From Diadophis punctatus similis (taxonomy: Eukaryota > Chordata > Lepidosauria > Squamata > Dipsadidae): a stretch of 64,000 nucleotides of DNA. The position numbers were made by a program, and so were the translations under genes. Position 1 is the stretch's first letter; each line of letters opens with the position of its first letter. The notes under the pieces were generated by a model. It ran no database searches. It was not told the DNA's origin and saw nothing but the letters and a program-made list of their open reading frames with translations. Shown one piece after another: positions 32,939-59,563 of this stretch. The DNA is taken from assembly GCA_023053685.1 (NCBI GenBank), contig JALIGW010000010.1:9829919-9893918 (forward strand), read 5' to 3'.

Positions 32939-34651
32939 CTAATTTTTTGATGGTTGTAACGATCTCAAGAATTTTGTAGATAAGTATACTCTATCCCCCA
33001 CCTGGAAAGGTTTAACCTCTACTCTTTTCTTGTCAGCTTGAATTTTGAAAGCCTCTCTAGCCTCCTGTAAAGCCAACCTGACTACTGGCCATGTGTTTTG
33101 CAACTTTTCTATCCACTCCTTAAGTGAGGGGATAGTTGGTTTTTCTGTGGGTAGTTCCAGTATTGGGCTGAAATCTTGCCCCGTGGCTACTCTAAAAGGT
33201 GTAAAACCTGTACTTGAATGCACAGAGTTATTAAATGCAACCTCTGCAAATGGTAAAAGTTCAGTCCAATTGTCCTGTTGAAAATTAATAAAACATCTTA
33301 GGTACTGTTCAAGAACGCCGTTCAGAACCTCGCAATTGCCATTAGTCTGAGGATGATGCGAAGAGCTCAACCCTTGGGCGGTGCCAAGTAGGTCCAAAAA
33401 CGCCTTCCAAAAATTGGAGGTAAATTGGACTCCCCTATCCGAGATTATCCTTTTAGGAGCTCCATGAAGACGATAAATGTGTATTAGAAACAGTCTAGCC
33501 AAGCCTTTGGCTGTTGGAATCTTTTGGCAAGGAATAAAATGTGCTTGTTTTGAAAACAAGTCTGTCACAACCCAAATGACTGTGTTTCCCCCACTATCCG
33601 GTAGTTCCACAATAAAATCCATAGCAATTTCTTCCCATGGGGCTGACGGCTCAGCTACTTTTTGTAGAAGTCCTGGAGTTTTCCCCTGGCGTCTTTTTGC
33701 TGCAGCACAGATGGGGCAACTTGCTACATAGCTTTCTATGTCCTTTTTCAACAAAGGCCACCAAAATTGTCTCTTTATTAAGTGTAAAGTTTTTACAAAG
33801 CCAAAATGTCCAGCCAACCTAGAGTCGTGGCACCTTCCCATTAAACGTAATCTTTGGCTAGCGGGTACATAAAGTTTGTCACCTATCCATGCTAATTCAT
33901 CTTTCATCACGCAGCTGGATTTGTGGTTCAAAACCCATTCATCGTTGACTAATGCTTGTTTAAATGCGTGAGTGATGTCTGCGTCCCTCAATGCGTCTTT
34001 TCCTCCTTCGGACCTGGTGATTACTTTGGCTGCCAGTTGATTTGTTTGTACTATAGGTTTAAATACCTCTGATTTCACACAGTTATATTGTGGCTTTCTG
34101 GACAGTGCATCTGCCAGAAAGTTTTTCCCCCCAGGGATAAATTTAAGAGTAAACTCGAACCGTTTGAAGTATTGCGCCCAACGAACCTGTTTAGGAGACA
34201 GTTTCCTTGGTGTCTTTAAGGCTTCTAAGTTTTTGTGGTCAGTCCAGACCTCAAAAGGGATCTTACTTCCTTCTAAGAATTGTCTCCAAGTTAAAAGTGC
34301 CCATCGCACCGCATAAGCCTCTTTTTCCCAGATCGCCCACCTTTGTTCAGTTTCACTTAGTTTCCTGGATGTATATGCACATGGCTGTAGCTGTCCTTGC
34401 TCATTGCTATGGAGTAGGATTGCCCCTATTGCCACATCGCTAGAATCAGCTTGTATTATGAAAGGTTTTTCTGGGTCTGGGTGCTTCAAAATTGGTTCTG
34501 TTGAGAACAGCCGTTTTAGCTTCTCAAACGCTGCCTGGCATTCCATTGTCCAATTCACGGGCTGTCTCGGTTTAGGATCTCCCTCCCCCTTTGTTCTTAG
34601 CAGTTTTGTGATGGTAACATCCCAGGGGGGGTGTTGAATGCCGTTTTCCAT
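32939..34651 (-). pseudogene. Gypsy RNase H and integrase
   Basis: 570 open codons start downstream of an RT deletion. RNase H: FIIQADSSDVAIGAILLH, a Glu in EKEAYAVRWAL, and VWTDHKNLEAL. Integrase zinc finger: His, His, then CPICAAAK. Core: AMDFIVELP (first Asp), IISDRGVQFTSNFW (second Asp), NGNCEVLN (Glu). All three acidic residues are present. The first codons derive from the end of the RT connection (TKLLRTKGEGDP). The frame is shifted relative to the RT piece at 34597-35406. Confidence 0.9.
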
Positions 34652-35480
34652 TCATCCCCCTCCTTAATTCTGATTCGGTAGTAAGCCTCCCTGATGTCTA
34701 GTTTGGAGAAGATTTTCCCTTTTTTGAGGTGGGCCAGCATGTCTTTCATCAGGGGGAGGGGATACATGTTTTCAACACTTATCGAGTTTAGGTTTCTGAA
34801 GTCAACACATAAGCGTTTTGTGCCATCTTTCTTCTCTCTAAATAGCACCGGGGCTGCTATCTTTGGTCTGGCTGGTTCAATGAAACCCCTTGCTAGGTTT
34901 TTCTCAATGAAAGCCCTCAGTTCCTCTAACTCCCCCGGTGACATGCTATACATTTTTGGTTTAGGTAGTTTAGCCCCGGGTAAGATTTCTATTGCACAGT
35001 CGGATGCGCGATGCGGGGGAAGTTCATCTGACGCTGCCTCGCTAAAGACTTCTGCCAGGTCTTTGTATTCCTTAGGTATGCTGTCTGTTTCCACGCTATG
35101 ACCAGGCATGGCTGTTTCCCTGCGCTCAGCCCCTTCAGTTTCTATCTGTGGATCCTCCGCAGTAGTTACGTGCATTTGGAATTTTATGGTGCCTTGCTCC
35201 CAATTTATTTTTGGATTCCACTTTTTTAGCCATGCGAGTCCCAAGACTAGTGGCCATTCCATGCCAGGTGCTACTATAAATGTAAGTTTCTCTTCGTGGT
35301 TATCAATGCCTATTTTCAGGGGTTCCGTGGCAAAAGCAGCCGGCTCCCCCCCTGCTATAGACCCATCCAATTGGCAAAATGCAATGGGATTTCTCAGCTT
35401 TCTCACTGTGATTTCCAGCTCCCTGATTAGGGTTGGGCTGATTAAGCAACGAGTGCATCCTGAGTCTACTAAAGCAGAGA
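34597..35480 (-). pseudogene. Gypsy protease and RT fingers, catalytic core deleted
   Basis: Upstream codons (about 35440-35480) encode ALVDSGCTRCLIS, the retropepsin active site. The long frame continues through RT fingers (KDGTKRLCVDFRNLN) and the first palm motif (FSKLDIREAYYRIRI). Immediately after EWKTAFNTPPG the sequence jumps to the RT/RNase H connection in another frame. About 150 residues normally found here, including the YxDD motif and thumb, are missing. This copy cannot encode a working polymerase. Confidence 0.88.
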
Positions 35481-36682
35481 TATTTTTCCCCCCTCTTGGT
35501 TAGGGATAAATAGTCTGAGTGGGAGGGTGAGCAGTTCAATTGGTTTGCTTACCAGTGCTTCATCCTCCGGATCGCTCTCGAACGCGGCTGGATCTTCCCT
35601 TTGAAATGCCGGGGTGTTGTTTTCAGCAGGAGGAGGGGGTGGTGGTCCCGTCATCTCGCTGCTCCTCAGGGCTGTTTCCCTCCCCCACTGGATGGGTCTC
35701 GTTGGTCTCTCCCCCGTTTGGCATTCGGGTTTCTGGGTGGGTGTTTGGGGCCAGCATTCGGGTGCTCGGTGTCCCTCCTTCCCGCATTTGTAACAGATTG
35801 GAGGTTTAGGGGAGAAGCCCTGTTGCCTTCTGAAGGGTTCTTTTCTCCATTGGGGTGGGGATTTCTTCCATGCTCTCCCCGTACGGTACTCATTCCTAGC
35901 CATATCAATCTCCGCTTCTTCAGCGGTGAGGTACCACTCATGCAGGTGATTTGGTGCACCCCTAGCCACGCAGGCATTATACAGATCGTCACTCAGCCCA
36001 TCCTTAAAACAGCTTACCAGGATGTCTTCTGGCCAGTTTAGCCGACATGCGAGGTCCCGGAATTCTTCAGTGTACTCCGCCACTGGTCGTCGTCCCTGTT
36101 TCACCACCTTAATACGGTCATGTGCTTTGCGGTCTGCCAGCGGGTCCTCGAATCGTCGTTGTAGGGCCGTCATGAATTGGTTGAAATTGCGCAGTTCGGG
36201 TGCGTCGTCGTTATGTAGGGTTACCATCCATCTGGCCGCGGCTCCTTCCAGGGCTAAGGTAACTGCTCGCACCCGAGATCCCTGGGTTTGGAACTCACGT
36301 CCATATTCTTGCATATAGGTGAGCACATGTGCTACGAAAAATCCCAATTGTTGTGGGTCCCCATCAAATTTCACCCCCAGGGGGGGAGTTTTCCTTTCTA
36401 GTTGTGGAGTTTGGAGTTGGTTAGGAAGTGGTGCCACTGCGTGTGCTGCCCTGGGGGGGTTTGTTGGGTTTCCTGCCGCGTCCTCCATCTGCACGCCTGC
36501 TCCCCAGAGGTTGTTGCCCCCCCAGTTTCCTCAGCGGTTGCTGTGCTCCCAGCGCTCGTTATCCGTCGTTCTGGGGTCCCTCGGATGTTGAGATTTTCTA
36601 ATGTTTCCATCACCAGCTGGGACAGGTATCTCTTCAACCGCCCCTCCCTTAGAGGCTCTTCGGTGGGTTCTTCCTGATCCAT
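35469..36682 (-). pseudogene. Gypsy gag
   Basis: Two overlapping minus frames: 36398-36682 (N-terminus, MDQEEPTEEPLREGRLKRYL) and 35469-36494 (341 codons) with a retrotransposon-gag domain (FVAHVLTYMQEYGREFQ, AARWMVTLHNDDAPELRNFN, FEDPLADRKAHDRI) and one CCHC zinc knuckle (CYKCGKEGHRAPEC, about residues 235-248). A small frameshift near 36400-36490 joins the two. Sushi-type Gag has the same layout and is the source of the mammalian RTL/PEG10 genes, but here it lies in a plain transposon. Confidence 0.85.
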
Positions 36683-42873: not shown

Positions 42874-43796
42874 TGGAGGACGTGGAATAGTACCTTTCTG
42901 CTATCGGAGGATTACCTGCTGAGAGACAGTGGACCAGAGAAATTGGAGATTCAACACCAGATGAGAGACCAGAAACGGAGCGGAGAAACAACACATGGTG
43001 GATGACTTAGCAATTTTGAACGGAACGATCTCTACTATTGAGGCCAAGGGAAAACATCTGATTGCAGAATCCAAGAAAATCAAGACCTCTAAAATACTTA
43101 CAGGATTGCCGAGATCCACTTAATACCAACTGAAACTAGTACCGCTTAAAAAGAACTATATTATATAACTTTTTTCTATTTTTCACCTTTGAACACTTAT
43201 TTCATTTTTATCACCTATTTTACTTTACACCAAATATTCTACTATAATTAAATTTTCTACCCTCTCCTCTTCCTATTTATAGATTGTAAAAAAGAAAAAA
43301 TCTTATTTAGTGTCTATAAATGTAATATTTTTAATAATATACACTGATTTTGAAATAGTATTTTTAAGGAACGATTTAAAACAAATAGAGATATATATTG
43401 ATTGAATTGTAAAGTCTATAGAGGATACTTTGAACAATAATAGAAATATATAAACTGTAATCATAACTATAATTAGATTGGTTAAAATTATATAAAGGAA
43501 ACTACTGATATATTGTGATATTCTACTGTATAACTCTTTAACATATCTAAAATATTTAATTAGTTATTAATATAAGTACTATAGTAACATAGATCATTTA
43601 TAGATATATTTATATAGAATTTTTGGATAATTGGTACATTTAAGAACATAGAGAACTATATCAGTAATCGATAGAATATACAGGATTGATAGAGAATTAA
43701 ATAATACAACAGGGTAAACGGTTGTTATATGGTAATCTGGGAGAGGATCTACAAAATTTTAGAATAACAAAAATCAATCTTAAAAGAATTGACAAG
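42874..43796 (+). mobile_element. L1-C 5' UTR
   Basis: About 920 bases, starting TGGAGGACGTGGAATAG after the left duplication, first mixed then AT-rich, with no long frame. It ends in GAATTGACAAG and resumes at 54810 with TAATACAACAAATATGCCC, where ORF1 starts, so it lies immediately upstream of ORF1 in the uninterrupted element. Confidence 0.75.
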
Positions 43797-44013
43797 TGTT
43801 AATGTATTAGCAGAGTATTCCTTGTGTTACCAAGGTTGTGCATACAGAAACGTTTAGATTGAGTTCAGTTGTGAATAAATACTCAGCCACACACAGATAC
43901 ACTAACTTGAGTTAAAGTCTACTTTAAGAAATAGCATTTTCCTATAAACAGTCCAAAGTCATACACTTAATAGTCATAATAACAATCCAAGTATTATCAA
44001 GTACAAATACATT
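43797..44013 (-). mobile_element. Copia 3' LTR, distal piece
   Basis: Starts TGTTAATGTATTAG on plus, equal to 54342-54558 of the other LTR apart from a few substitutions, and stops at AAATACATT where the DIRS element begins. Confidence 0.93.
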
Positions 44014-44022
44014 CTCCATAGT

Positions 44023-44134
44023 GGGTGGAGCTAGCCTCCAAGGAATGGGTTAAATCTGCCCTCTAGCCAATAGGACCGAGTCTTAAAAAAGGTATAAATA
44101 GTGCCAACCTAGATTGGCACCCCCTCTTTTAATC
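44023..44134 (+). repeat. DIRS left inverted terminal repeat
   Basis: Exact reverse complement of 49946-50057 over 112 bases by eye. Includes TATAAATA at 44093-44100, so it may provide the promoter; the mirror copy of the TATA box lies at 49980-49987. Confidence 0.95.
44093..44100 (+). promoter_or_regulatory. TATA box in DIRS left ITR
   Basis: GGTATAAATAG lies about 820 bases before the ORF1 ATG. A promoter in the terminal repeat would allow a transcript covering all DIRS genes. Function is inferred. Confidence 0.5.
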
Positions 44135-44915
44135 TCGGTCCATTAGCCAAAGGGCATTGTGCTTCTCCACCTTGGAGGCCAGTTCCACAGCTATTGGATT
44201 CTGATTGTCTTAACTACAGTGAGTCTGCTTATCCATCTGTCTGTAAGTCTCCCCAGGTGACAGCTGTCATTACCATCTGTGTCTCTCCCTGGGTTGAGCC
44301 GGCTCAGGCGGCTGCCTGAGCTGTTTTTTCTCTCCCCAACGTTCCGGTGGGGGTGGCTACCTCCCTGGGAACCCTCACGTTGGGCATCTCCTGTCTACTA
44401 ATCGACTGCGGGGGGAAGCCAGAAAATTAACATCCGTACGCCGCAGAAGCCCTGCGCTTGGGCGGCCATCGGCTTACCCCCCCCCTCGGCTGGAGTGTTC
44501 CTCCCACAGCCGGTAAACGTCCTTCTGTGCGTTTTTCGGCCGCCCCGGCAGAACCCTAGATCTGCAAGGCCGACGTCGCCAGGCCGCTCCCCCAGGGGAA
44601 TCCCTGTCAGGCCTTCTTCGGCTGGAGGCCAGATCGGGCGCTCCTAAAGTGGCGCGAAAGGCCGTTTCCGAGCAGATAAGGCGACGTCACCGGCGGCCAT
44701 CTTGGAAGACGAATCCCTGCTCGCTGATTGGACTGCGCCCTTAGTGAGGTCAGCCGGCTGCCGGAGGATCCCTGCGCCGCCCGCTCATCAGCTGGGGAGC
44801 GCGCGCACGCGCAGTGCGTTCCTCTCCCCCCGCCGAGCTCAAAGCGCCGAAGAAAGCGGCTGGCAGAGATAGCCGCAGCAGATAAATAAACTTTTTTACT
44901 GTGTGGTGTTTACTG

Positions 44916-46702
44916 ATGGCGGAAGGTACCGGCAAGCAGGGGAAGGCAAAAGCGAAGTCAGCCAGACCCATTCCACCTGAGCCATCCACCGAAGCTCCCC
45001 AAATGCCGCATACCACCAACGACAGCAGGGATCGCTCCCCCATCCACACCCCTCCCCCTGCCAAGCCAAAGAAGTCTTCCAAGGCTTCTTCCAGGGGAGA
45101 TGGGCATAAGGGGGCTTCCAACAAGCATGCAGGGGATACTGAGGCGTCCCACCATGGCACCCCCCGTCCCCATGCCACTCCAGGGCACCACCCCAAGGGA
45201 CCCCTGTCAGGGGATCTCAGCCATGGGAAAAAAACCAGTCACTCACCTGACAACGTTTCCCTCGATGGCCCCAATGTCCTTTTACGTGAGGGCGACGTGT
45301 GGGGTGCCTCCCAGGTTCAGGAGCTGGACACTCGACGCAGGCCCTCTTCCAGCGCCCATGATGACCCATTGGAGGACCCTGCCATGCAACAACGAATGAA
45401 CGATGCCATACAACGTGGCATCGAGGCCGCGGTCAGGGCAATGGCGCGCCCCTCTCAGCCCATCCCACCACCGCGCAGGGCCGACTCACCTCCTCCTGTC
45501 CCGGCACCAGTCTCCTCCGACGAGATGGAGGATGACGAGTACTCCATCCACAGTTCCCCCATTCCAGCTGGGGACCTAGACAGGGAGGAAGGGGAACTTG
45601 ATGAACTGCCTGCAGCCGGGGAACAGCTCCATCCTCAGCTGTCAGATGATGAGGACTTGGCCCCAGAGCCGTCTACTTCCACCGCCCTTTTCCACCCTAG
45701 CCTTTTCCGCTCTTTACTACACAAGGCTAAGGCAACGGCCAACATTCCGTCGTTGGCAACCGATCCCCAGACTGCATCGGAACAGGGCGACCCCATATTT
45801 GGAGAGGCGTCCACGTCCCCATGGAGGTGATCCCTACGCCCAATTTATTCATCGAGGCAGTGACGAAACAATGGCAATCCCCTGCCACAGGTCCTTCTCC
45901 CACAAACCTCGACAAACGTTACTTTAACGTCTCTTCTCGACTGGCCCAGCACCTGCCAGTTCCAGACGTCGATCCACCTGTGTTGGCTCTCTATTCCAAC
46001 GCTCCCGTTCCAGGGGACCCGGACGACCTCCTACGCCCGGAGGAACGCCGTGTGGAATCTATCCTCCAACGCAATCACCAGGCGGCCGCATGGACGGTCA
46101 GAGCATCAACAACCGCGTCCTTCTTTTGCCGGACCTCCCTCAAATGGTTACATGGCCTTCAAGACCATATCCCTCAGGCTGACACAAGGGCGCACCAGGA
46201 TATAAACAAATTAATTGCTGCTGCCCAGTTCGCCTCCGACTCCACCTTGCAGGCAGGACGCTTCGCGGCCAGGGCAATGGGCACAGCGGTTGTGGCCAGG
46301 AGGATGCACTGGCTCCGCAGCTGACCAGCTGACCTGTGGCACAAATGGAAGCTAGCCGCAGCTCCGATTTCGGGTCAGTCGCTGTTCGGCCCGGCCCTCG
46401 ACCGCATTACCACCGAGAATAAGGACAAGAGGAAAGTTCTTCCCTCCTACACGAAGAAGTCCTACAACAAGGCCACCCCTTATCGTCGGGGGTCCAGAGC
46501 CTCTGACACTCCTTACAGTAGATACCAGAACCAATACCAATCTGGTCAGGGTCAATACGGGTCTTCCCAGCCTCAGTACGGGACCTCCCAGAATTCCTAT
46601 GGGTCACGGCAACGCTCGTCCGTTGACCGGCCTTTCCGGGGTGGGCAAACCAAACGGCCCTTTAGAGGAGCCGGTGGTCGCCCTTACCGCCGGTACAAGT
46701 AG
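44916..46702 (+). pseudogene. DIRS ORF1 (Gag-like), one frameshift and one stop
   Basis: The ATG at 44916 opens a Pro/Ser/Lys-rich N-terminal region (to about 45830). A frameshift near 45820-45830 passes to a second frame (45821-46321) with a conserved-looking segment (FNVSSRLAQHLPVPDVDPPVLALY, AAWTVRASTTASFF). A TGA at 46322, where a Trp codon would fit (LRS-stop-PADLWHKWKL), is followed by an in-frame tail rich in Arg, Tyr, Gln and Gly ending at 46702, probably RNA-binding. Layout matches DIRS Gag proteins. The end overlaps the RT frame. Confidence 0.75.
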
Positions 46703-48602
46703 ATGTGACCCAATCCCTCCCATTGGGGGTCGACTGGCATTCTTTGCCAGTCGGTGGGAGGAAATCACCAATGACGCATGGGTTTTACAAACCCTGTCGA
46801 CAGGACTGTACCTGGAGTTTATCTCCACCCCTCCGAGGTTTTTCTTACGCTGCCCCTTGTCTTCCAACATTTCCAAACGCGTCCTCGTAGATCAGGCAAT
46901 CCAGCACCTGTTGGACATTAGAGCCATCCAACGGGTGCCCGAGGACCAGCAGGGGCAAGGATTTTACTCCATCTTATTTGTGGTTCCAAAATCCTCGGGG
47001 GGATGGAGAGCAATTCTCGATCTGAAACGCCTTAACAGATACGTGAGGTACAGAAAATTCAAGATGCACACCCTGCAATCAATTCTGGCGGGCATTAGGC
47101 GCGGCGACTTTCTCGCCTCAATTGACTTGACGGAGGCCTACCTCCATATTCCAATTCACGCATCCCACCGCCAATACCTCAGATTTTGCTATGCAGTGGT
47201 GCATTACGAATACCAGGCGTTGCCCTTCGGCCTGTCGTCAGCGCCAAGGGTATTCACCAAGGTTCTGGCCGCCTTGGCAGCCCACCTCAGGGCTACACCC
47301 GTGCGTGTTCAGTGTTACCTGGATGACATACTTATCCAGTCTTCTTCCCTGTCTCAAGCTCAGCAGGACATCCAGGTAACCCTCAACACACTTGAACACC
47401 ACGGGTTCCTCGTTAATTTGGGTAAGAGCCAGTTGTCCCCCTCCACCAGGGTCACCCACCTGGGGGCCATTATTGACTCCCTGGAGTGCAGGGTCTACTT
47501 GTCCCAGGAACGGAGAGACAGCATATTGGAGATCGTCCAGCTAGTTCTGGCCCAACCAAGGGTTCCCCTAAACCAGCTGTCTTCCCTCCTGGGAAAAATG
47601 ATTTCCGCGATACATATCGTTCCGTGGGCTCATCTGCACTCCAGGGACCTTCAATGGTTTCTTCTCCCTTTCCAGCGGGCAAATCGCAGCAACTCCCCTG
47701 TAAGGGTCCGGTTGCCGGTGTCAGCAAGGAGGTCGCTCCAGTGGTGGTCGTCGCCCGCCCTCAGCAAGGGCTCCTGTTTCCTGGAACCGCAAAGGATGAC
47801 CCTGACGACCGATGCCAGCACCACGGGCTGGGGGGCCCACACCGACTCTCTAGTCACCCAGGGGACATGGTCCAGGAAGGAACAGGTTCTGCCAATAAAC
47901 CTGTTAGAGCTCAGAGCAGTTCGGTTGGCTCTGGCCCATTTTCAACCGCATTTGACCGGCCGTCACATCCTCGTCCTCACAGACAACGTGACGACAAAAG
48001 CGCATATAAATCGTCAGAGGGGCACCATCTCCAAAGCCCTTATGAATGAGGCAATGGTTCTGGGGCTGTGGGCGGAGCGGTACCTGCCTTCAATCACGGC
48101 GGAACACATTTCCGGTGTCACCAACACCACAGCAGACTGGCTCAGCCAGAATGCTATCAACCCGGCAGAGTGGTCCTTACACCCGGACATTTTTCAGGAG
48201 ATCACCACCCGCTTCGGACCACCGACCGTGGACCTGTTCGCGACACCGGCGAACGCCAAACTCCCCAGGTTCGTGACCAGGTTCCGGACCCCGGGCGCGG
48301 AGGACACGGACGCTCTACGCTGCCGGTGGCCGCAGGAACTCTTATATGCCTTCCCACCTCTCCCGTTGATCCCCAAAGTCATACGGAGGGTAATATTGCT
48401 GAAGGCGGAGATCATCCTCCTCGCCCCACATTGGCCCAGGAGGACTTGGTTCGCGGACCTTATATCCCTGTCCGCGTCACCTCCCTGGCGGATCCCGCCG
48501 ACAGAGTGGTCGCTTGCCCAGGGGTCAGTGCATCATCCAGAGCCGCACTGGCTACAACTGACCGCCTGGTGCTTGAGCGGATCACTCTGCAACACCGCCT
48601 AG
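46599..48602 (+). CDS. DIRS reverse transcriptase-RNase H polyprotein
   Basis: An open frame of 667 codons. RT: GGWRAILDLKRLN (about 134-146), SIDLTEAYLHIPI (174-186, first Asp), LPFGLSSAP (208-216), active site YLDD (240-243). RNase H: TTDAS (Asp 404), LLELRA (Glu 437), LTDN (Asp 461) and TADWLS (Asp near 513); all four acidic residues are present. The region after about 530 (FGPPTVDLFATPANAK) is the DIRS-specific extension where a Dam-type methyltransferase domain is usually placed; I cannot confirm its catalytic motif. The first ATG overlaps ORF1, so the true start may be lower. The frame is undamaged. Confidence 0.93.
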   Translation: MGHGNARPLTGLSGVGKPNGPLEEPVVALTAGTSRCDPIPPIGGRLAFFASRWEEITNDAWVLQTLSTGLYLEFISTPPRFFLRCPLSSNISKRVLVDQAIQHLLDIRAIQRVPEDQQGQGFYSILFVVPKSSGGWRAILDLKRLNRYVRYRKFKMHTLQSILAGIRRGDFLASIDLTEAYLHIPIHASHRQYLRFCYAVVHYEYQALPFGLSSAPRVFTKVLAALAAHLRATPVRVQCYLDDILIQSSSLSQAQQDIQVTLNTLEHHGFLVNLGKSQLSPSTRVTHLGAIIDSLECRVYLSQERRDSILEIVQLVLAQPRVPLNQLSSLLGKMISAIHIVPWAHLHSRDLQWFLLPFQRANRSNSPVRVRLPVSARRSLQWWSSPALSKGSCFLEPQRMTLTTDASTTGWGAHTDSLVTQGTWSRKEQVLPINLLELRAVRLALAHFQPHLTGRHILVLTDNVTTKAHINRQRGTISKALMNEAMVLGLWAERYLPSITAEHISGVTNTTADWLSQNAINPAEWSLHPDIFQEITTRFGPPTVDLFATPANAKLPRFVTRFRTPGAEDTDALRCRWPQELLYAFPPLPLIPKVIRRVILLKAEIILLAPHWPRRTWFADLISLSASPPWRIPPTEWSLAQGSVHHPEPHWLQLTAWCLSGSLCNTA

Positions 48603-48625
48603 TTCCGGACAATATCTCTTCAATC

Positions 48626-49642
48626 ATGTTGGCATCTAGGCGACCGTCGACGGAGCGGATCTACTCCACCACCTGGCGCGCCTTTTGTGGATGGTGTGCG
48701 CAGGTGGGATATTCGCCAGTCGACCTATCCATCATCAACGTCATCCAATTCTTGCGGCAGGGGCTCGCCAAGGGCCTCGCTCCCAACACTTTGCGCAGAC
48801 AGGTTGCGGCGCTTTCGACTGTGTTGTCCTGCCCGCACCTGGACTCGCTCTCCGCTCACCCGCTAATGAGACAATTCCTGAAGGGGGTCACTAATCTTTG
48901 TCCCCCAGTGGTGCACCGTTTCCCCACATGGGACTTGTCCAAAGTTCTCTCCGCCCTAACTGTAGCCCCCTTCGAGCCCTTGGACACTATTCCTTTAGCG
49001 CATCTGTCCTTTAAAGTTGCCTTCCTTGTGGCCGTCACCTCCGCGCGGTGGATATCTGAACTCGCAGCCCTGTCTGTGCGCGAGGACCTGTGCGTCTTTC
49101 ATAGCGACAGGGTGGTTCTTCGCCTGGACCCGGCATTTGTGCCCAAGGTGAATACTCATTTTCATAGAGCGCAGGAAGTCATCTTGCCCACATTTTTTCA
49201 AAATCCGATCTCCGACTCTGAACGTGCTTGGCACATGCTAGATGTCAGGCGCGCTCTGGACATCTATCTCAAACGTACAGCCTCTCTTCGGCGCACAGAG
49301 ACTCTCTTTGTGACATTTCGCCCTTCTAACCAGGGTCGTAAGGCGTCCTCCGCAACGATCGGACGATGGATCCGTGCAGCCATTTCCTTGGCCTACAAAC
49401 ATATGTCCTTACCCCAACCGTCGGGCCTCACAGCCCATTCCACCCGCAGCGCTGCGACGTCCGCGGCATGGAATGCTAGGGCTTCCATCACCGAGGTGTG
49501 TAGGGCGGCCACTTGGTCCTCCCTGACTCCCTTCGTCCGACATTACAAGTTTGACGCCTATGCCTCGGAGGAGACCGATTTCGGCAGGCGGGTGTTGGGG
49601 GCAGGGTTGCCATTGGGCGATCTTCCCAGCCAGGACGAATGA
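48626..49642 (+). CDS. DIRS tyrosine recombinase (YR)
   Basis: From the ATG at 48626 this is 338 codons; the frame is open from 48068 but upstream codons shadow the RT frame. N-terminal core-binding region: RPSTERIYSTTWRAFCGWC. Catalytic domain: Arg in TSARWISELAAL (about 141), HSTR (His 271, Arg 274) and Tyr in FVRHYKFDAYAS (about 307). The Arg-His-Arg-Tyr set is complete. The enzyme would integrate a circular intermediate without making target duplications, which fits the junctions. It ends 30 bases before the internal complementary region. Confidence 0.92.
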   Translation: MLASRRPSTERIYSTTWRAFCGWCAQVGYSPVDLSIINVIQFLRQGLAKGLAPNTLRRQVAALSTVLSCPHLDSLSAHPLMRQFLKGVTNLCPPVVHRFPTWDLSKVLSALTVAPFEPLDTIPLAHLSFKVAFLVAVTSARWISELAALSVREDLCVFHSDRVVLRLDPAFVPKVNTHFHRAQEVILPTFFQNPISDSERAWHMLDVRRALDIYLKRTASLRRTETLFVTFRPSNQGRKASSATIGRWIRAAISLAYKHMSLPQPSGLTAHSTRSAATSAAWNARASITEVCRAATWSSLTPFVRHYKFDAYASEETDFGRRVLGAGLPLGDLPSQDE

Positions 49643-49671
49643 CCCGCCCAGGGACGCCAGCTTTGGTATGT

Positions 49672-49768
49672 CCCATTCCTTGGAGGCTAGCTCCACCCAC
49701 TATGGAGAAGGGACGTTGGTACTCACCTGTGAGACGTCCTTTCTCGTAGGGTGGAGCTAGCCTCCAAG
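49672..49768 (+). repeat. DIRS internal complementary region
   Basis: 49672-49707 is the exact reverse complement of the left terminus 44014-44049, and 49708-49768 is the exact reverse complement of the right terminus 50038-50098. Read through, it is the complement of the joined ends (CCCTT/CTCC). This is the template used in the DIRS1 replication model to complete and circularise the cDNA. It also fixes both element ends independently of the target site. Confidence 0.95.
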
Positions 49769-49945
49769 TCCCTCCCACGTCTGGGGCTGGCTGGAAGTTA
49801 CGGGTCCCTGATTGTACATAATTATTCATTGTCTGGTTTGTGATCCTTCACATATACATAGTTCTAATTCTCTGGTAATTCTATGTATATAGTTAATAAA
49901 TTCTTGTTGTTTTAGAGAAGCACATTGAGTCTGACTTTATCCCTC

Positions 49946-50057
49946 GATTAAAAGAGGGGGTGCCAATCTAGGTTGGCACTATTTATACCTTTTTTAAGAC
50001 TCGGTCCTATTGGCTAGAGGGCAGATTTAACCCATTCCTTGGAGGCTAGCTCCACCC
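49946..50057 (-). repeat. DIRS right inverted terminal repeat
   Basis: Reverse complement of 44023-44134. A further 41 bases (50058-50098) form a right-end extension without a counterpart at the left end except in the internal region. Confidence 0.95.
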
Positions 50058-50098
50058 TACGAGAAAGGACGTCTCACAGGTGAGTACCAACGTCCCTT

Positions 50099-50344
50099 TT
50101 AGCTATAATACATAACTACAACACAGAGAGAAATGCAGAGCATACATACACAATGTCTTGCTCTAGTGAGTAACAGAGAACACAGAGTAGCAGAGACCAA
50201 AGATAAACAGAGAGGGACTCCCAGAGAAATAAGCTGTGAACTCTAGCTCCCTCTTGTGGCAGTCTGCAACACCTCAGCTAAACAGACATAGCTCTGTTAA
50301 TAGCTAGACATATATTGTCTACCCAATCAGAGAGAGACCTAACA
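50099..50344 (-). mobile_element. Copia 3' LTR, proximal piece
   Basis: Resumes the LTR with TTAGCTATAATACATAAC and ends AGAGACCTAACA. Followed on the internal side by TTCTCCCCTTTGGGT, which on the minus strand is the polypurine tract AAAGGGGAGAA. Confidence 0.93.
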
Positions 50345-50377
50345 TTCTCCCCTTTGGGTAGGTCAATATATAATACC

Positions 50378-52051
50378 TTACATCTTTAAACCATAGTTTT
50401 CACAACACACTTTGTGTTTAATTGCACCTTGCGCTTTAGTGAAATGATCTGCAATATTCTGTTCAGTCATGCAGTATTCCAACTTAACCATTTTATTTTG
50501 AACACATTGTCTAACATTCAGATATCTCAAATCAGTATGTTTTGACCTTGTTTTCACAGCTAAACTATTAGCCATACTAATGGCAGATTGATTGTCTTCA
50601 TACACAATAAATGGCTCCTGTACAGTAATTCCTATATCCTTTAACAATTGTTTATAATACACCAATTCTGTACACATTAATGATAAACTCGAGAATTCTG
50701 CTTCCATAGTGGATAAACTAATATGTTGTTGCCTAATAGATTTGCACCCTATTAAAGCATTACCCAACATTACCACTATACCTGATGTCAATTTGCGAGT
50801 CATTGCATCAGTAGCAAAACTTGCATCAGCATATGCAGTTAACATTAATTCATTTCTCGGTTCTAAATATAAAGAATAATGTATTGTGTGCTTTAGGTAT
50901 CTAAGTATTCGTTTAGCTGCTTGCCAATGCCTTTCATTTGGTTCAGCATTATATCTAGCCAGTTGATTTACGCTGTAAGATATATCTGGTCTAGACCAAT
51001 TACTCAAATATGAGAGACTACCAATTAGAGACTGGTATATCTCCTTATCAAACACAGGACATTTACTATCACTATTTGTAAATCCCTGATCCATTGGTGT
51101 CTTAGCAGTTTTACAATTCTCCAGGTTATATCTTTTTAACAATTGGCTAATCTTCTTAGCTTGTGAAATTTTGAATCCTCTATTTATCTTCATTATATCA
51201 AGACCCAAATAATGTTTAATTTCTCCTATATTTCTAATCTTGAACTTTCTTTGTAATTCAGAAACAATATCATTTGCTTCTTGTTCAGTCTTTGTTATAA
51301 TCGCTATATCATCTGTAAATAATAGCAACAGAAAAATCAAACCATCTTTCTCTCTCCTAAATAAACAAGGATCAGCTATACCAGCTTTAAAATCCATGGA
51401 AACTAATTGTTTTACAATGCATTTATTCCATTCATAACCTGATTGCTTTAAGCCATAAAGACTTTTCTTTAATTTCCAATAATCATTTTTTCCATCATCT
51501 TTTAAACCTAATGGCTTTCTCATATAAATGGTATGTTGTAAAGGTGCATGTAGATATGCAGTTTCGACATCTACATGATTAATTATGCATTTATTTTTAG
51601 CTGCCCAAACTAATGCTCCTCTCAATGTATTTGCTCTCAGACTAGGTGCAAATACCTCATCATAATCCTTATCTGATTGAGCAAATCCCTGAGCAACTAA
51701 TCTTGCTTTATGGGTAACAGTGCCATCCACACCAGTCTTTAATTTATACACCCATCTGCAACCTATTGCACGCTCACCTGGTGGTAACTTGACATCTTCA
51801 TATACCTCAAGATCCTTTAAAGATTTTAATTCCTTATTCATAGCTTCCTGCCAAGCTACCTGTTCCTTTGTTGGATACAGCTTAAGTTCATTATAATTAG
51901 ATGGTTCCACATTAATCTGGCATACAATACTTGCCTGATATCTATCAGGTGGACGTCTCTCCCTAGTCGACCTCCTAGGCAATTTAGTACAAGTTGTTGG
52001 AATTTCCTCTTCCTTTTCCTCCCCTATCGAAGTATCTTCTATATCATCCAT
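50378..52051 (-). CDS. Copia reverse transcriptase-RNase H
   Basis: 557 open codons. Copia RT family motifs in order: GCRWVYKLK (about 97-105), KARLVAQGF (115-123), HVDVETAYLHAPL (159-171, first Asp), KKSLYGLKQS (195-204), FTDDIAI (245-251), YLGLDI, then RNase H with YADASFA, STMEAEF and YEDNQSAI. The catalytic box is FTDD rather than the usual YVDD; both Asp are kept. It ends just before the polypurine tract. Upstream it is out of frame with the Gag-integrase ORF, with stops between about 52055 and 52327, so the polyprotein is broken. Confidence 0.92.
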   Translation of the reverse strand: MDDIEDTSIGEEKEEEIPTTCTKLPRRSTRERRPPDRYQASIVCQINVEPSNYNELKLYPTKEQVAWQEAMNKELKSLKDLEVYEDVKLPPGERAIGCRWVYKLKTGVDGTVTHKARLVAQGFAQSDKDYDEVFAPSLRANTLRGALVWAAKNKCIINHVDVETAYLHAPLQHTIYMRKPLGLKDDGKNDYWKLKKSLYGLKQSGYEWNKCIVKQLVSMDFKAGIADPCLFRREKDGLIFLLLLFTDDIAIITKTEQEANDIVSELQRKFKIRNIGEIKHYLGLDIMKINRGFKISQAKKISQLLKRYNLENCKTAKTPMDQGFTNSDSKCPVFDKEIYQSLIGSLSYLSNWSRPDISYSVNQLARYNAEPNERHWQAAKRILRYLKHTIHYSLYLEPRNELMLTAYADASFATDAMTRKLTSGIVVMLGNALIGCKSIRQQHISLSTMEAEFSSLSLMCTELVYYKQLLKDIGITVQEPFIVYEDNQSAISMANSLAVKTRSKHTDLRYLNVRQCVQNKMVKLEYCMTEQNIADHFTKAQGAIKHKVCCENYGLKM

Positions 52052-52329
52052 AGATGGTTCTCCATAGATGATTCCTCTATTGAGGATTCTTTCACTATCC
52101 TATCATCAGTACTATTCTTATCAGAATCATCAGGAAACAATGGATCCTCAACAACAATACTATCTTGTTCCTTGTATTCCTGTTCCAGTTTACTCCATCC
52201 AACATGCTCAAGGAATTTAGCACTTGCACTACAATATACTCTAATAGTACCTGGCTCCCAGAATCTAAATGATCTATGATTAGATTCATACCCTAAAAAA
52301 CATAATTTCCGTGCTCTATGTTGTTCCTT

Positions 52330-54249
52330 TCACCTTACTTGTGTGGGAATATGCACCCATGCTGGTGCACCAAATGTATGCAAATAACTAAGATTTGGTT
52401 TCCTACCATACCAACGAGTAAATGGCAATTCACCAGTTGTTGCATTCACTACATTGTTCAAAACATGGTTAGCACACATTATAGCTTCACCCCAGAGCCT
52501 CTCTGGTAAACCAGAATCTGAAATCATGGTTCTAGACATAGCCTGTAATGTCTGACCTCTACGTACAATATGCACATTATGTTGTGGCCGATAAGGAGCA
52601 GAACGCTTATGTTCAATACCAGCTCTCTTTAGCATATCTTCAAATCTCTTATTGGTAAACTCAGTACCGTTATCTGTTACTAAACTAACCAGTTTCTTAT
52701 TCAGTTTTTGTTCAACAAACCTTAACCAGTTTACAAAATGCTGATATGTTTCTGTTTTCGTTTTCATCAGATAACAGAAACCATATCTAGAAAAATGATC
52801 AACTATGCTCAATATATAACAGGCTCCACCTAAACTGGGTTTCTTAGGGCCAATGAGATCAGCAAATACAACCTCTAATAGTTCCTTGATTTTAAATCCA
52901 TTTAACCTGTTAGCAGGAATTACCTTGCTCTTTTCCTGATTGCAAGCATTACAATTTAAATATCTTGCGCAAGGTTTTAATTTTATACCATTAGATAACT
53001 CAACAGTTTTCTTTAAAATTTTGAAATTCAAATGTCCCATACGTCTATGGAGCAAATGAATACATTCGTCATGAGGCTTTCTATTTTCATAAACTGAATT
53101 GGCCTTATTTAATGGACTATCATGGATAATGCATAAGCCATCATGCAATCTTGCAGTAACTCTTTTACCTTGCTTTTCAATTAAACATTTATCTCCCTGA
53201 AAAGTTACCACAAACCCTGCTTTTACTAATTCTCTCACAGATAGTAAGTTATATATAAGGTTAGGTACATATAACATTGGTAAACTTTCATTAATACATG
53301 AACAATATGCATTACCTTCTCCAGATACTCTCAATTTCCAGCCATTTGCTAATGATACATGCTGGTTACTTTTAATCATATTGACAAATCTCTCTTTACT
53401 TTTAGTTATAAACTGAGATGCCCCACTGTCTATTATCCAGATATCATGGCTTACAGTTTTATTTGTACTTGATATAGCTACACTAACATCATTATAAGCT
53501 TTCTGCATATTACTAGCATTCTGCTTTTTACCCGTTTTACAGAATCTGGCTATATGACTCTTAGCCCCACAAGAATAACATTTCCTAACAATATAGGCAG
53601 TTGAAGACAGTTTTTCTTCCTGTGGTTGTTTCTCTCTCAGTTGTTTTCTATCTTGCCTTCTTCTAGACTCTTCTAACAGTCTTCCTATTATGCCAGTCAA
53701 TGTCAGTTCATCTCTGGTCAAAACTTCCAGTGAAGACACATAATCATCATAAGAGTCATCCAAAGAAGAAAGAATAATATAAACTTGATGCAACTCTGAG
53801 AAAATCAGTTCTTTTTCATGTAGCTCTTGTAATGTTCTCTTCATAAACTCCAAATGAGCTAACATGTCACCACCTTTTAACAAACGTGCTCTGAACAGTT
53901 TACGTGTAAGGCGTATGTGCGCACCAACACTATCTCGAACATAAAGTCTCTTTAAGGTACTCCAACACTTGGCAGCAGAATCTTCACCATGAATATGGAC
54001 CAGTTGCCGATCACTCAGTGTCAGTCCAATAATACTAAGAGCCTTTTCATTATCCCGGTTAAAGTCAGCTATTTTCTTCTTATCTTCATCATTTGTTGGA
54101 TCCCAAGCTGTTATATCAGGTGGATTATTAACCACAGTCCATAATCCTTCTTTACGCAAAAGTAAGCTGCACTTCATAGACCAGGAAACATAGTTAGTTC
54201 CATCTAACCTGGTTATCAGGGATAAGCTAGTTGACTGTTCTTGTGCCAT
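52330..54249 (-). CDS. Copia Gag-protease-integrase (truncated polyprotein)
   Basis: I prefer the ATG at 54249 (MAQEQSTSL) over the upstream ATG at 54318, which lies almost in the primer site. Domains: Gag with LDGTNYVSWSMK near the start; one CCHC knuckle CYSCGAKSHIARFC (about residue 225); protease WIIDSGASQF (about 275); integrase zinc region (HRRMGHL, CNACNQEK) and core with FADLIGP (Asp) and TDNGTEF (Asp). Where HNG.AER with the catalytic Glu is expected, the sequence reads HNVHIVRRGQ, so the Glu is missing. A stop at 52327 ends the frame before RT. Confidence 0.9.
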   Translation of the reverse strand: MAQEQSTSLSLITRLDGTNYVSWSMKCSLLLRKEGLWTVVNNPPDITAWDPTNDEDKKKIADFNRDNEKALSIIGLTLSDRQLVHIHGEDSAAKCWSTLKRLYVRDSVGAHIRLTRKLFRARLLKGGDMLAHLEFMKRTLQELHEKELIFSELHQVYIILSSLDDSYDDYVSSLEVLTRDELTLTGIIGRLLEESRRRQDRKQLREKQPQEEKLSSTAYIVRKCYSCGAKSHIARFCKTGKKQNASNMQKAYNDVSVAISSTNKTVSHDIWIIDSGASQFITKSKERFVNMIKSNQHVSLANGWKLRVSGEGNAYCSCINESLPMLYVPNLIYNLLSVRELVKAGFVVTFQGDKCLIEKQGKRVTARLHDGLCIIHDSPLNKANSVYENRKPHDECIHLLHRRMGHLNFKILKKTVELSNGIKLKPCARYLNCNACNQEKSKVIPANRLNGFKIKELLEVVFADLIGPKKPSLGGACYILSIVDHFSRYGFCYLMKTKTETYQHFVNWLRFVEQKLNKKLVSLVTDNGTEFTNKRFEDMLKRAGIEHKRSAPYRPQHNVHIVRRGQTLQAMSRTMISDSGLPERLWGEAIMCANHVLNNVVNATTGELPFTRWYGRKPNLSYLHTFGAPAWVHIPTQVR

Positions 54250-54325
54250 TGTTAATTTAACAGTAAACCACAAGTTAGCTGTCTGAGTATGAAACTGAAT
54301 ATTCACACTAACTCTCAATATCTAT

Positions 54326-54339
54326 CTGGGCCCATAACC
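54326..54339 (-). promoter_or_regulatory. Primer binding site for initiator tRNA-Met (internal)
   Basis: On the minus strand GGTTATGGGCCCAG, two bases inside the 5' LTR, is complementary to the anticodon stem-loop of initiator tRNA-Met (CTGGGCCCATAACC). Drosophila copia primes from a cleaved half of this tRNA at an internal position. The match supports the same unusual priming here. Confidence 0.8.
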
Positions 54340-54341
54340 AG

Positions 54342-54804
54342 TGTTAATGTATTAGCAGAGTATTCCTTGTGTTACCAAGGTTGTGCATACAGAAACGTTT
54401 AGATTGAGATCAGTTGTGAATAAGTACTCAGCCACACACAGATACACTAACTTGAGTTAAAGTTTACTTTAAGAAATAGCATTTTCCTATAAACAGTCCA
54501 AAGTCATACACTTAATAGTCATAATAACAATCCAGGTATTATCAAGTACAAATACATTTTAGCTATAATACATAACTACAACACAGAGAGAAATGCAGAG
54601 CATACATACACAATGTCTTGCTCTAGTGAGTAGCAGAGAACACAGAGTAGCAGAGACCAAAGACAAACAGAGAGGGACTCCCAGAGAAATAAGCTGTGAA
54701 CTCTAGCTCCCTCTTGTGGCATGCTGCAACACCTCAGCTAAACAGACATAGCTCTGTTAATAGCTAGACATATATTGTCTACCCAATCAGAGAGAGACCT
54801 AACA
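54342..54804 (-). mobile_element. Copia 5' LTR
   Basis: 463 bp, TGTTAGGTCTCT ... TACATTAACA on the minus strand, uninterrupted. Differs from the split 3' LTR at about 8 positions by eye (for example GTGAGTAGCAGAG against GTGAGTAACAGAG). Confidence 0.95.
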
Positions 54805-54822
54805 ACAAGTAATACAACAAAT

Positions 54823-55846
54823 ATGCCCATGAAGGCGGGAAACAGACCAGCTGGAGCTGCAAGTGCAGCATTACCAGTCACTCAAAGGCAGATAGATGAC
54901 ATGTTACCAGTAGAAAAAGGGGGCACATCCCTTATGCAGAATATGAACAGCGCACTAAACGTGGTTCAGGAAACAATGCTTAAACTACAGGAATTGATTA
55001 CGCAAAATCATACCGAACTAAAATCAGATATTTCAAGATTAGACAATAGAATGGAGATGATACAGGAGGCGATACAAAAAAACGAACAACGTATTAGTGG
55101 TGTGGAAAAAAACAACGGAACAAAATGAAAATAAAATTGAGAAGGTCGTCCAGAGAGTGACAGAAATAAATGGAGAGCTGGAGACCTCACTGATCCATCT
55201 CGATATGGACAGATCATCTTACTTTTAAGAATACAAAATATTCCAGAGAATAAGGAGGAAGATTTGGGAGATGTGATGGCAGGGGTGGTAGCAGAAATTC
55301 TACAGCAAAACAAAACAGATACCAGAAATGAAATAGATGAAGTGTACAGGATACAAACCAATTATGCTAGACGTCACCGCCTGCCGAAAGAAATACATAT
55401 AAGGTTTGCCAGAAAGAAAAGAAGAGATAACGTTTACTTAGCCACGAGAGGGGGGACATTAACATACAAAGGGAAATAAACATCTTGAAACAAGTCCCAA
55501 GAAAGGTTAGGGAACGTAGAAGGGACTATAAGCCACTGGCAACATTGTTAAATAAAAAGAATATTATATTTAGATGGCTCATTCCGGAGGGGATGATAAT
55601 AACCTTAGAAGGACGAAAAGTAAAGGTGGATACCATAGAAAGAGCACAGGAGGTATATGAACAACTTGCTGGTATGGAGAAAGAGATGGAAAGTGAAGGA
55701 AAAGTGGATGGGGCAAGTGAAGAAGAAGAACAGGAGATTGAAGAAGAGGTACAGAGGGAGGGAATTGAAGAGACTGAAGATTTAAATAAAAAAGTAGAGA
55801 GAATTAAAACAAGGACACAAACAGCAGCAGAAGCAAAAAGTAAATA
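54823..55846 (+). pseudogene. L1-C ORF1
   Basis: The ATG at 54823 begins a protein with a coiled-coil-like region (SLMQNMNSALNVVQETMLKL, ISRLDNRMEMIQEAIQ), a central part with LRIQNIPE-like codons and VYRIQTNYARR, and a C-terminal part (NIIFRWLIPEGMIITLEGRK) followed by an acidic Glu-rich and Lys-rich tail. This coiled coil, RRM and C-terminal order is that of L1 ORF1 proteins. Stops at about 55126, 55227 and 55477 break it. The copia insertion lies about 20 bases upstream of the ATG. Confidence 0.85.
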
Positions 55847-55892
55847 GTTAGAAAAACACTTTATAAACAAAACCGGAAACGTTAAAGGAAAT

Positions 55893-58800
55893 GAAACTTA
55901 TATCATTAAACATTAAATAATGCACAAAAAAGAAGGAAAATATTTTCAAAATTAGTTAAACAAAAAGCAGAAGTAATATGTTTACAAGAAGTCCATATCA
56001 AACAAATACATAAAAAATATCTGGAATATTCAAAACTAGGGAAATTATACGCATCATTAGGGGGGGAGGTGTAGTAATATATGTACAAAAAGAGATTGAG
56101 TCTAAAAAAATAAAAGTAGATTCCAAAGGAAGATATATAATGGTTGAAATTGAAATAGGGGGAGAAAAAATATTATTAGTGAACATATACGCACCCAATC
56201 AAAAACAAAAAAACTTCTATCAAAAGATACATGAGAAATTAACGACAACTAAATATAAAAATATATGTTTAATAGGGGATTTTAACAGTATAATAGATCC
56301 AAAAAGAGAGTACATAACAGGGAAAAACCAAAAAATTAACAAAAATACACTACCAACTACATTTAAAGACATGATAGAGGAGTTAAATTTGACAGACACA
56401 TGGCGATTATTACACCCTAAAGACAAACAATATACATTTCATTCAATACCACACCAATCCTTTTCAAGAATAGACATGGTCTGGACAAATAAAGAAATGT
56501 GCAAGAACATAGCATCGGTGGAGATAGCCCCAAACATATGGGCAGACCATAGCCTCTTAATAGTAATATGGAAAGGAAAAAAGAAAGGAATAAGGAGATG
56601 GACTCTGAACACAAAAATACTCCAAGAAGATGAATACATACAAACAATCACCAAAGAAATAAAATTATTTATGAGAGAGAATAAGAAACAGCCTACAACC
56701 ATACAAAACTTATGGGATACATTAAAAGTATATATAAGGGGAATTACAATTGCCTATATGGCAAAGAAAAATAGAGAAAAATGGCAGGAATACAATGAAA
56801 AAATAAAGGATATTCAACAGTTAGAAAAAAGACTACAAAAAGAGCCAAAGGAAGAGAACACACATAAATTATTAATGGAAACGAGGCATAAATTGAACTT
56901 AATTGAACAACAGGAATATTTGAAGGACATTAGGCTTACAAAACAAACATTCTTTGAAACAGCAAATAAACCCTGTAGATGGCTAGCCACAGAATATTAT
57001 AGAGACTTATACAGACAGGACCCAGTGGAATTAAATAAAATAACAAAATATTTAAAGGAAATTAGTATACTGCAAATAGAGGAAATTGATAAAGAAATGT
57101 TAAACAGGGATATTACAACGCAAGAAATCCAAAATTCAAATTCAAAACAACAATAAAACACCAGGACCGGATGGATTTCCAGGGGAATATTACAAAAAAA
57201 TGAGTACAGTACTGGAGGATATTTTATTAGAGCTATATAATGAAGCATTAACAGGAGCTAGGATACCAAATACGTGGAGGGAAACATATATCACCACGAT
57301 CATGAAAGAAGGTACCGAGAAAAATCATATACAAAACTACAGGCCAATTTCGTTGTTGAACAGATTATAAAATTTTCATGACAACTATGGCAGAAAGAAC
57401 CAAAAAAATACTAAATAAAATTATTTATTCAGATCAAAATGGATTTTTACCAATGCGGCAGATAAAAAACAATACAAGAATCGTTTTAGATATATTGGAA
57501 TATTATGAAGCGCATCCAGAAAAGCAGGTCGCCCTAGCTTTCCTGGATGCGCAAAAAGCGTTCGACAACGTAAATTGGCAGTATATGATAGGTTTGATCA
57601 AAGAGTTGAAATTTGGCGACAAATTTGAAAAAATTATAGAAACAATCTACACCTCCTAGTCAGCCAAGATTATGATAAATGGAGACATGACACAATTCCA
57701 GATCTTTAAAGGAGTACATCAGGGATGTCCGATGTCACCTCTGCTCTTTATCTTAACATTGGAAACACTACTAAATAAAATTTGAAATAATAAGGATATT
57801 AAGGGAACAAAGATTAGAAACCAGGAGTATAAATTACAGGCATTTGCCGATGATCTCGTATTTTTTATAGAAGAACCAATTGAAAGAGGACAAAAACTGA
57901 TTAAAGAGATAGAGGAATACGGAGAATCGGCAGGATTGAAAATCAATAAACAAAAAACTAAACTATTAACAAAAAATATGACAATAAAACAAAAAGATGA
58001 ATTGGAAGGGAAATTAGGCTTACAAACAACCAAAACAATTAAACATCTAGGGATAATACTAACAAATAGATGTTCATCCATTAAAAAAGACAATTATGAC
58101 AAATTAGTAAACCAAACAAGATTAGAATTAGAAAAATGGAAAAAATTACAGTTATCATTATTAGGGCGTATAGCTGCGATTAAAATGAGTATACTGCCAA
58201 AATTTTTATACCTATTTCAAATGGTTCCGATTGAATTAGAGACTAAATTTTTTATTAATTTGAATAAAATTATATCTAAATTTATATGGCAAAACAAAAA
58301 GCCAAGAATCAAATTAACGAATCTACAGGATGATAAGAGCAGAGGTGGCCTAGGACTCCCTGACTGGAAACTTTACTACAAAGCAGCATCCTTGGCGTGG
58401 ATAAAGGAATGGATAAATTTAACCAACAAAAGAATACTAACGCTAGAGGGCCACGACCTACAAATGGGATGGCATGCTTACATATGGAGAGATGGAAATA
58501 AACCACAACTTAACTTCAACCAACACCTAATTAGAAAATCTTTGCTAAAAACATGGTACGAAACTAAAAAGAAGAACTACATGAAAATCCCCAAATGGCT
58601 TTCAATTATGGAAGCAATGACCTACCCGAACTTAATTGATATAACCAAAGCAGCAAAATATAGCGACATATTTGATCTGACAGGGAAATTAAAAAGTAGA
58701 GAACAACTGGTGGAACAAAATATAAATATTGATTGGTTGACTTGCAATTAAAAACTCGACACAAAAAAGATACTGAGGGTATAGATATGGAAGTGCAAAA

Positions 58801-59563
58801 ACTGGATAAAATTTTGATTGGCCCGGATGAAAAAATAATATCGAAACTATATATTTATTTATTTATTTATTTATTTATTTATTTTGTTATTCTTATATGC
58901 CGCCCAACTCCCGAGGGACTCGGGATATATAAATATCTACTGGAATTTGATAAAATGGAGGAAATTGTTAAAGAACCCATGATAGCATGGGCAAAAAACG
59001 TAGGCCACAACATACACTTGGCTGACTGGGAGAGAACATGGATTATAAACTGCAAAATAACTAAGTCAACAGCATACAAAGAGAATTATTATAAAATGTT
59101 TTATAGATGGCATTTAGCTCCATCAAGATTGGCCAAAATATACCCAAAAATGAATTCGGCTTGCTGAAAATGTAAAAAAGACGTAGGTACCTTCTTTCAT
59201 GCGTGGTGGTTGTGTCCCGAAGCAAAGGGCTATTGGAAAAAGGTGCATGCTTGGTTACAAGAAATTACAGAGAGAACAATGGAATTCACCCCAGAATTTT
59301 TCCTGCTGGGGATAATGGAAAAACAACATCCAAAAAACATACAATATTTAATACTACATATTACAACAGCGGCAAGAATAACATATGCACAATATTGGAA
59401 AGACAATCAAACCCCACCAGAAAACATACTAATGGACAAAATATATAGATGTGCTGAAATGGACATGCTGACTATTCAACTCAAAGGACAATGCAACTCA
59501 GAATACTACAAAACATGGACTAGATGGTACAACTGGACTAAAAAAAGAGGCAAGACTGTGTGA
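55893..59563 (+). pseudogene. L1-C ORF2 (endonuclease and reverse transcriptase)
   Basis: Endonuclease codons run from about 55893 (MKLISLNIK) with stops, then an open frame 56140-57156: ICLIGDFNSIIDP, SRIDMVWT and ADHSLLIV are APE-type motifs. RT: YRPISLL (about 57340), LAFLDAQKAFDNV (57533-57570), GCPMSPLLFILTLE (57726-57768), active site FADDLVFFIEE (57843-57875). An open thumb/C-terminal frame spans 57936-58751 (GLGLPDWKLYYKAA, LQMGWHAYIW). After the 72-bp L2 insert at 58854 the C-terminal zinc-like region follows (MFYRWHLAPSRLAKIYP). Several stops and shifts make it non-functional. Confidence 0.9.
58854..58925 (-). mobile_element. 72-bp L2 3' tail inside L1-C ORF2
   Basis: A TTTA run followed by TATGCCGCCCAACTCCCGAG is the reverse complement of the extreme 3' end of the L2 elements (compare 9407-9470 and 60540-60605). 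The short target TATATA is repeated on both sides (58848-58853 and 58926-58931), and removing the insert restores the L1 codons. It is a very short 5'-truncated insertion. Confidence 0.85.

What the first reader, a model, noticed from the sequence alone, without database searches (positions are those of the whole stretch)
44014..50098. Complete DIRS-type element with exact ITR and internal-complementary-region geometry
The internal region at 49672-49768 equals the complement of the two joined ends, the ITRs are 112 bp and identical by eye, and RT, RNase H and tyrosine recombinase keep all catalytic residues. Only two lesions in ORF1 separate this copy from an intact element. It could be a recently active DIRS lineage.
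Basis: partly seen in the sequence, partly recalled or inferred. Interest (0 to 1): 0.85.

Follow-up and report, generated by a model that had tools for sequence, protein, structure and literature searches.

The report
Young snake DIRS inside a Copia
This is a complete, fairly young DIRS-type jumping gene that landed inside another jumping gene (a Copia element), probably in a snake genome; its ends are perfect, but its genes carry more damage than first thought, including a changed key residue in the enzyme that inserts it.

Summary
The structural observation is exact: 112-nt inverted repeats with no mismatch, and an internal region that is the exact reverse complement of the joined ends. It is a DIRS1-like element of 6085 bp: gag/LAP2alpha, RT-RNase H with a sub-threshold Dam-like match, then tyrosine recombinase (YR). 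It lies inside the 3' LTR of a Copia element. The intact partner LTR gives the empty site: one TT is shared and there is no target duplication, as expected for YR insertion of a circle. Copia's LTRs differ at 8 of 463 sites, a ceiling on the DIRS insertion's age.

One RNase H position departs from 117 of 117 relatives. The two ORF1 lesions are real. So this copy has at least four apparent defects and is probably not self-sufficient.

Nearest relatives are snake DIRS, where recent expansion and expression are published (PMC8872380). Other copies in the host genome could not be checked: the genome search was unanswered in 7 of 7 tries.

The parts
44014..50098 (+). DIRS1-like element, 6085 bp; ends ambiguous by the 2-nt TT
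44023..44134 (+). left ITR, 112 nt, 100% complementary to the right ITR; TATAAATA at 44093
44916..46702 (+). ORF1 (gag-like, LAP2alpha family in its second part), broken by a frame change within 45731-45830 and a stop at 46322-46324
46356..48602 (+). open frame with RT and RNase H; sub-threshold Dam-like match at about 48171-48395; RNase H residue 555 departs from 117 of 117 relatives
48050..49642 (+). tyrosine recombinase frame; relatives align with the part used here, 48530-49639; Trp at the first catalytic Arg position (codon at 49049)
49672..49709 (+). left ICR, exact reverse complement of 44012-44049
49708..49768 (+). right ICR, exact reverse complement of 50038-50098
49946..50057 (+). 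right ITR
50058..50098 (+). divergent end of the right ITR plus right extension, matched only by the right ICR
43797..54804 (-). Copia element that hosts the insertion; 5-bp target duplication ACAAG at 43792-43796 and 54805-54809
43797..44013 (-). one half of the interrupted Copia 3' LTR
50099..50344 (-). other half of the interrupted Copia 3' LTR
54342..54804 (-). uninterrupted Copia 5' LTR; holds the empty site ACATTTTAGC

Best explanation
A DIRS1-like retrotransposon copy, probably in a snake genome. RNA of a parent copy was reverse transcribed, the missing terminal sequence was rebuilt on the ICR, and a circle formed whose junction is CCC-TT-CTCC. A tyrosine recombinase, from the parent or another copy, exchanged the circle with a chromosomal ACA-TT-TTAGC inside the 3' LTR of a Copia already in place, leaving no target duplication. 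After insertion, mostly, the copy decayed: a frame change and a stop in ORF1, loss of the first catalytic Arg position of the YR, and an RNase H change. It is now a young copy that could move only with proteins from other copies. Shown here: anatomy, empty site, lack of target duplication, order of insertion, lesions. Inferred: the RNA and circle route (published DIRS-1 model), loss of YR activity, timing of the lesions.
For: ITR, ICR and shuffle control; the 20-nt motif in both ITRs and both ICRs and nowhere else in the window; gene families and Cre-like fold of the YR; junctions against the uninterrupted LTR and a third LTR copy; Copia target duplication; 8 of 463 LTR differences and none in ITRs or ICRs; ORF1 breaks; YR and RNase H departures and alignment to XerD and Cre; relatives are snake DIRS.
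Against: The RNA and circle steps are not seen here. The YR residue mapping rests on HHalign with low probabilities (2.9% and 29.1%), though both agree. 15 of 119 relatives' rows also lack Arg there, two with Trp; I take them as decayed copies, which is not shown. Copia's own interior has a lower CpG ratio (0.27) than the rest of the window (0.42), so the element's 0.71 may be composition rather than youth.
Confidence: 0.8

Rival explanations
1. The main lesions were already in the RNA that gave rise to this copy: a defective copy moved in trans by the proteins of an active one.
For: Several defects sit in a copy with flawless repeats; trans movement of non-autonomous copies is known for retroelements in general (PMC5633606, passages).
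Against: An insertion under the Copia ceiling (0.875% change per lineage) leaves room for tens of changes in 6 kb, enough for these lesions after insertion (my estimate).
Confidence: 0.14
2. An old copy whose ITRs stayed identical by gene conversion.
For: ITR identity alone cannot exclude conversion between the repeats.
Against: The insertion must be younger than the Copia LTRs (8 of 463 differences), and the ICR, a third repeat, also matches with no change.
Confidence: 0.03
3. Assembly artefact or misjoin.
For: Young repeats are prone to misassembly; reads were not available here.
Against: Both junctions fall at the ends predicted by the ICR, and the flanks rejoin without loss or gain into a full LTR with its own ACAAG duplication.
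Confidence: 0.02

Closest known systems
DIRS1-like elements of Anolis and Xenopus (AcDIRS1, AcDIRS2, XtDIRS2, XtDIRS3; PMC3266345, abstract and sections 3 and 10 read)
   Same: ITRs, two overlapping ICRs, right extension, gag then RT-RH-MT then YR, no target duplication; sizes alike (5571-6196 bp; conserved ITR 102-140; ICR 39-43 and 58-65)
   Different: Conserved ITR 112 nt, ICR 38 and 61 nt, overlap 2 nt rather than 3; not compared by DNA with these elements
Snake DIRS proteins in databases (Pantherophis, Ahaetulla, Notechis, Crotalus and others)
   Same: YR up to 64% identical; the window lies in an 18-row clade whose 13 named rows besides it are all snakes
   Different: No listed protein of the first 120 is above 66% identity to the window's YR, so it is a distinct family
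DIRS-1 of Dictyostelium (PMC5633606, passages)
   Same: Founding member: inverted terminal repeats, ICR, overlapping RT-RH-MT and YR frames
   Different: Not compared by sequence here
Ngaro and PAT elements (PMC3266345 section 3)
   Same: Retrotransposons with a tyrosine recombinase
   Different: PAT elements have split direct repeats (Ngaro likewise, PMC9210276 passages); the only 100% direct repeats here are ICR parts

Membership tests
DIRS1-like retrotransposon | Inverted terminal repeats | tested here: met
   112 nt, 0 mismatches
DIRS1-like retrotransposon | ICRs complementary to both ends, overlapping at the circular junction | tested here: met
   38 and 61 nt exact, overlap 2 nt; 3 bp is usual, two of 28 tabulated elements have 2
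DIRS1-like retrotransposon | gag ORF, RT-RNase H, and tyrosine recombinase ORF | tested here: met
DIRS1-like retrotransposon | Methyltransferase domain after RNase H | tested here: inconclusive
   Pfam Dam 18.3 bits, cut-off 28.1; four listed relatives (P0191, P0205, P0206, P0227) carry the precomputed Dam domain
DIRS1-like retrotransposon | Insertion without target duplication at a short match to the circle junction | tested here: met
   empty site in the partner LTR; one TT shared
Ngaro / PAT (split direct repeats) | Split direct repeats at the ends | tested here: not met
   direct repeats of 20 nt or more in 43500-50600: two exact families, both ICR parts, and two weak ones
Self-sufficient (autonomous) DIRS copy | Open ORF1 and complete YR catalytic set | tested here: not met
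   ORF1 broken twice; Trp at the first catalytic Arg position
Recently active DIRS lineage | Near-identical, intact or polymorphic copies, or transcripts | not tested
   The genome search unanswered; no RNA data

The most novel reading that the evidence does not exclude
The circle needs only a TT dinucleotide in common with its target: junction C-TT-C met target A-TT-T, with mismatches on both sides, less than the identical 3-bp sequence of the usual model. If general, the unequal end trinucleotides of other DIRS elements (10 of 28 in the published table, for example AcasDIRS1 GTT/CTT) include target-derived bases, and DIRS insertion makes almost no sequence demand.
Probability: 0.45. Interest if true: 0.4.

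Novelty: new member of a known kind. Interest (0 to 1): 0.27.

Why it matters
It is a clear natural record of DIRS insertion: the empty site is preserved about 4.5 kb away in the partner LTR, so the crossover can be placed within two bases, and the host Copia gives an age ceiling that does not depend on the ITRs. It corrects the idea of an almost intact copy, and it adds a young family in snakes, where DIRS expansion is already reported.

Tried and rejected
ITR/ICR match by chance: rejected (200 shuffles, longest 18 nt). Further copies in the window: the 20-nt motif occurs only at the four expected places with up to 3 mismatches, and tblastn of the 240 proteins and 9 hits the window outside the element only in the Gypsy RT region (4 rows). 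Relatives or the motif in viral contigs, and the motif in prokaryote genomes: none; those collections are not of animals, so this says little. Rfam on the window at gathering score: no match. Pfam on the window's own YR frame: none, while 13 of the 22 members of alignment A1 match Phage_integrase at E up to 0.1. In print: DIRS with 'empty site' (1 paper, title and abstract start seen, on target-primed elements), with 'nested insertion' (4 papers, listing only), with 'circular junction' (1 paper, PMC3266345), elapid DIRS (2 papers), squamate DIRS (13 papers, listing; PMC8872380 opened); the library is open-access only, so I claim no priority. Age in years is not asserted: with assumed (recalled) rates of 0.7-2.4e-9 per site per year the Copia insertion would be 3.6-12.5 My old.

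Full report
What is there. The window holds a DIRS1-like retrotransposon at 44014-50098 (6085 bp). Its ITRs, 44023-44134 and 49946-50057, are 112 nt and 100% complementary. The region 49672-49768, read on the other strand, is the right end (50038-50098) followed by the left end (44012-44049), with the TT at the join counted once; 38 and 61 nt match with no mismatch, and the next base on each side already differs. In 200 dinucleotide shuffles the longest inverted repeat was 18 nt. A 20-nt motif occurs four times in the window, in both ITRs and both ICRs, and nowhere else with up to 3 mismatches; a short sequence shared by both ITRs and both ICRs is described for DIRS1-like elements (PMC3266345, section 10).

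The catalytic claim. RT and RNase H keep the residues I recall as catalytic, near-invariant in relatives. The YR does not. In the RR[IV]SEL motif of relatives, the second Arg, position 174 of window:48530-49639, is Trp here. Of 123 aligned rows from 120 relatives, 4 have a gap there; of the other 119, 104 have Arg, 4 Cys, 4 His, 4 Gln, 2 Trp and 1 Lys. HHalign of the family with E. coli XerD and, separately, with P1 Cre puts this column on XerD R148 and Cre R173 (numbering), the first catalytic Arg (recalled). The HHalign probabilities are low (2.9% and 29.1%), each template being one sequence; the two agree, and the fold match is strong. The HSTR, W and Y positions are kept. A scan for positions where the window departs from a residue shared by at least 85% of relatives gave five in the YR (72, 174, 223, 224, 357) and two in RT/RNase H: 555 (shared by 117 of 117) and 598 (110 of 114). 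So the copy has at least four apparent defects; 'only two lesions' and 'all catalytic residues' are not right.

Where it landed. The two flanks are the halves of one LTR of a Copia element on the minus strand (43797-54804; copia gag, integrase and RT families). Copia has a 5-bp target duplication, ACAAG, at its outer ends. Its other LTR (54342-54804) is uninterrupted and reads ACATTTTAGC at the site; a third LTR copy reads ACATTTCAGC. The left junction reads ACATT|CTCC and the right CCCTT|TTAGC. The circle junction, from the ICR, is CCC-TT-CTCC and the target ACA-TT-TTAGC: one TT is shared, both neighbouring bases differ, and nothing is lost or duplicated. A conservative exchange by a tyrosine recombinase would leave just this. 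The usual account speaks of an identical 3-bp sequence (PMC3266345, section 3). Its Table 3 also has two 2-nt junctions (BfDIRS2, AmDIRS1) and unequal start and end trinucleotides in 10 of 28 elements, one of them (AcasDIRS1 GTT/CTT, junction AAG) of the same form as here (ATT/CTT, junction AAG); the added point is that the source of the odd base can be read directly.

Age. The Copia LTRs differ at 8 of 463 sites (K2P 1.75%, 0.875% per lineage), a ceiling on the DIRS insertion. Within DIRS the repeats show no change; if identical at insertion, this gives a 95% upper bound of 0.82% per lineage, or 1.5% on the ICR alone, which by the model is the surer clock because the ends are templated on it. 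CpG observed/expected is 0.71 in the element, 0.42 in the rest of the window and 0.27 in the Copia interior; composition differs between elements, so this is weak support. The insertion is fairly recent; activity today is not shown.

Host and kin. The top named YR and RT relatives are snakes (YR up to 64% over most of the query). In a 31-row tree the window lies in an 18-row clade (support 95/85) with 4 unnamed rows and 13 named ones, all snakes; one further snake row (Erythrolamprus) and two lizards lie just outside it, and no smaller supported group places the window. The best Copia RT match is from a coral snake, Micrurus (81% over 63% of the query). The host is therefore probably a snake; no call names it. 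In hydrophiine snakes DIRS and Copia are reported as expanding and DIRS subfamilies as expressed (PMC8872380, section 3.4).

How it works, and what is inferred. In the DIRS-1 model a transcript lacking terminal sequence is copied, the ICR supplies the ends, a circle forms and the YR inserts it; the paper calls it not fully proven (PMC5633606, passages). Each ITR here has TATAAATA (44093 on +, 49980 on -) near its inner edge, which suggests that transcripts start close to the inner end; an AATAAA lies at 49895, before the right ITR. If RNAs both started and ended there, the inner ITR could not be rebuilt from the ICR, so some RNA should read through the right ITR. This is a prediction from motifs only.

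Verdict. A real, complete, fairly young DIRS1-like element with a resolved insertion site; a new member of a known kind, less intact than described. Whether its lineage is active could not be tested: the host genome search was unanswered in 7 of 7 tries.

Noticed in passing
28468-28941: Solo LTR of the same Copia family in the other orientation, flanked by a 5-bp duplication AGATG.
   Followed up: partly
50378-54321 (-): Copia interior: gag and integrase frame 52330-54321, RT frame 50378-52099, apparently broken between them; RT 81% identical to a Micrurus protein over 63%.
   Followed up: partly
32574-36530 (-): Gypsy-type element: aspartyl protease and RT at 34597-35499, chromodomain at 32574-32990, gag-like and integrase-like frames by eye.
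   Followed up: no
9613-15316 and 59742-63617: Two related LINE-type regions in opposite orientation, 79-94% alike in the longer pieces, the second with an RT domain.
   Followed up: no
16619-19464 and 55431-59563: Two further LINE-type regions with RT domains, about 70-74% alike in parts.
   Followed up: no
29983-30319: Long TA / TG / TATATA microsatellite.
   Followed up: no
44093, 49980 (-), 49895: TATAAATA in each ITR facing inwards, and AATAAA before the right ITR: possible promoter and polyadenylation signals, by motif only.
   Followed up: partly
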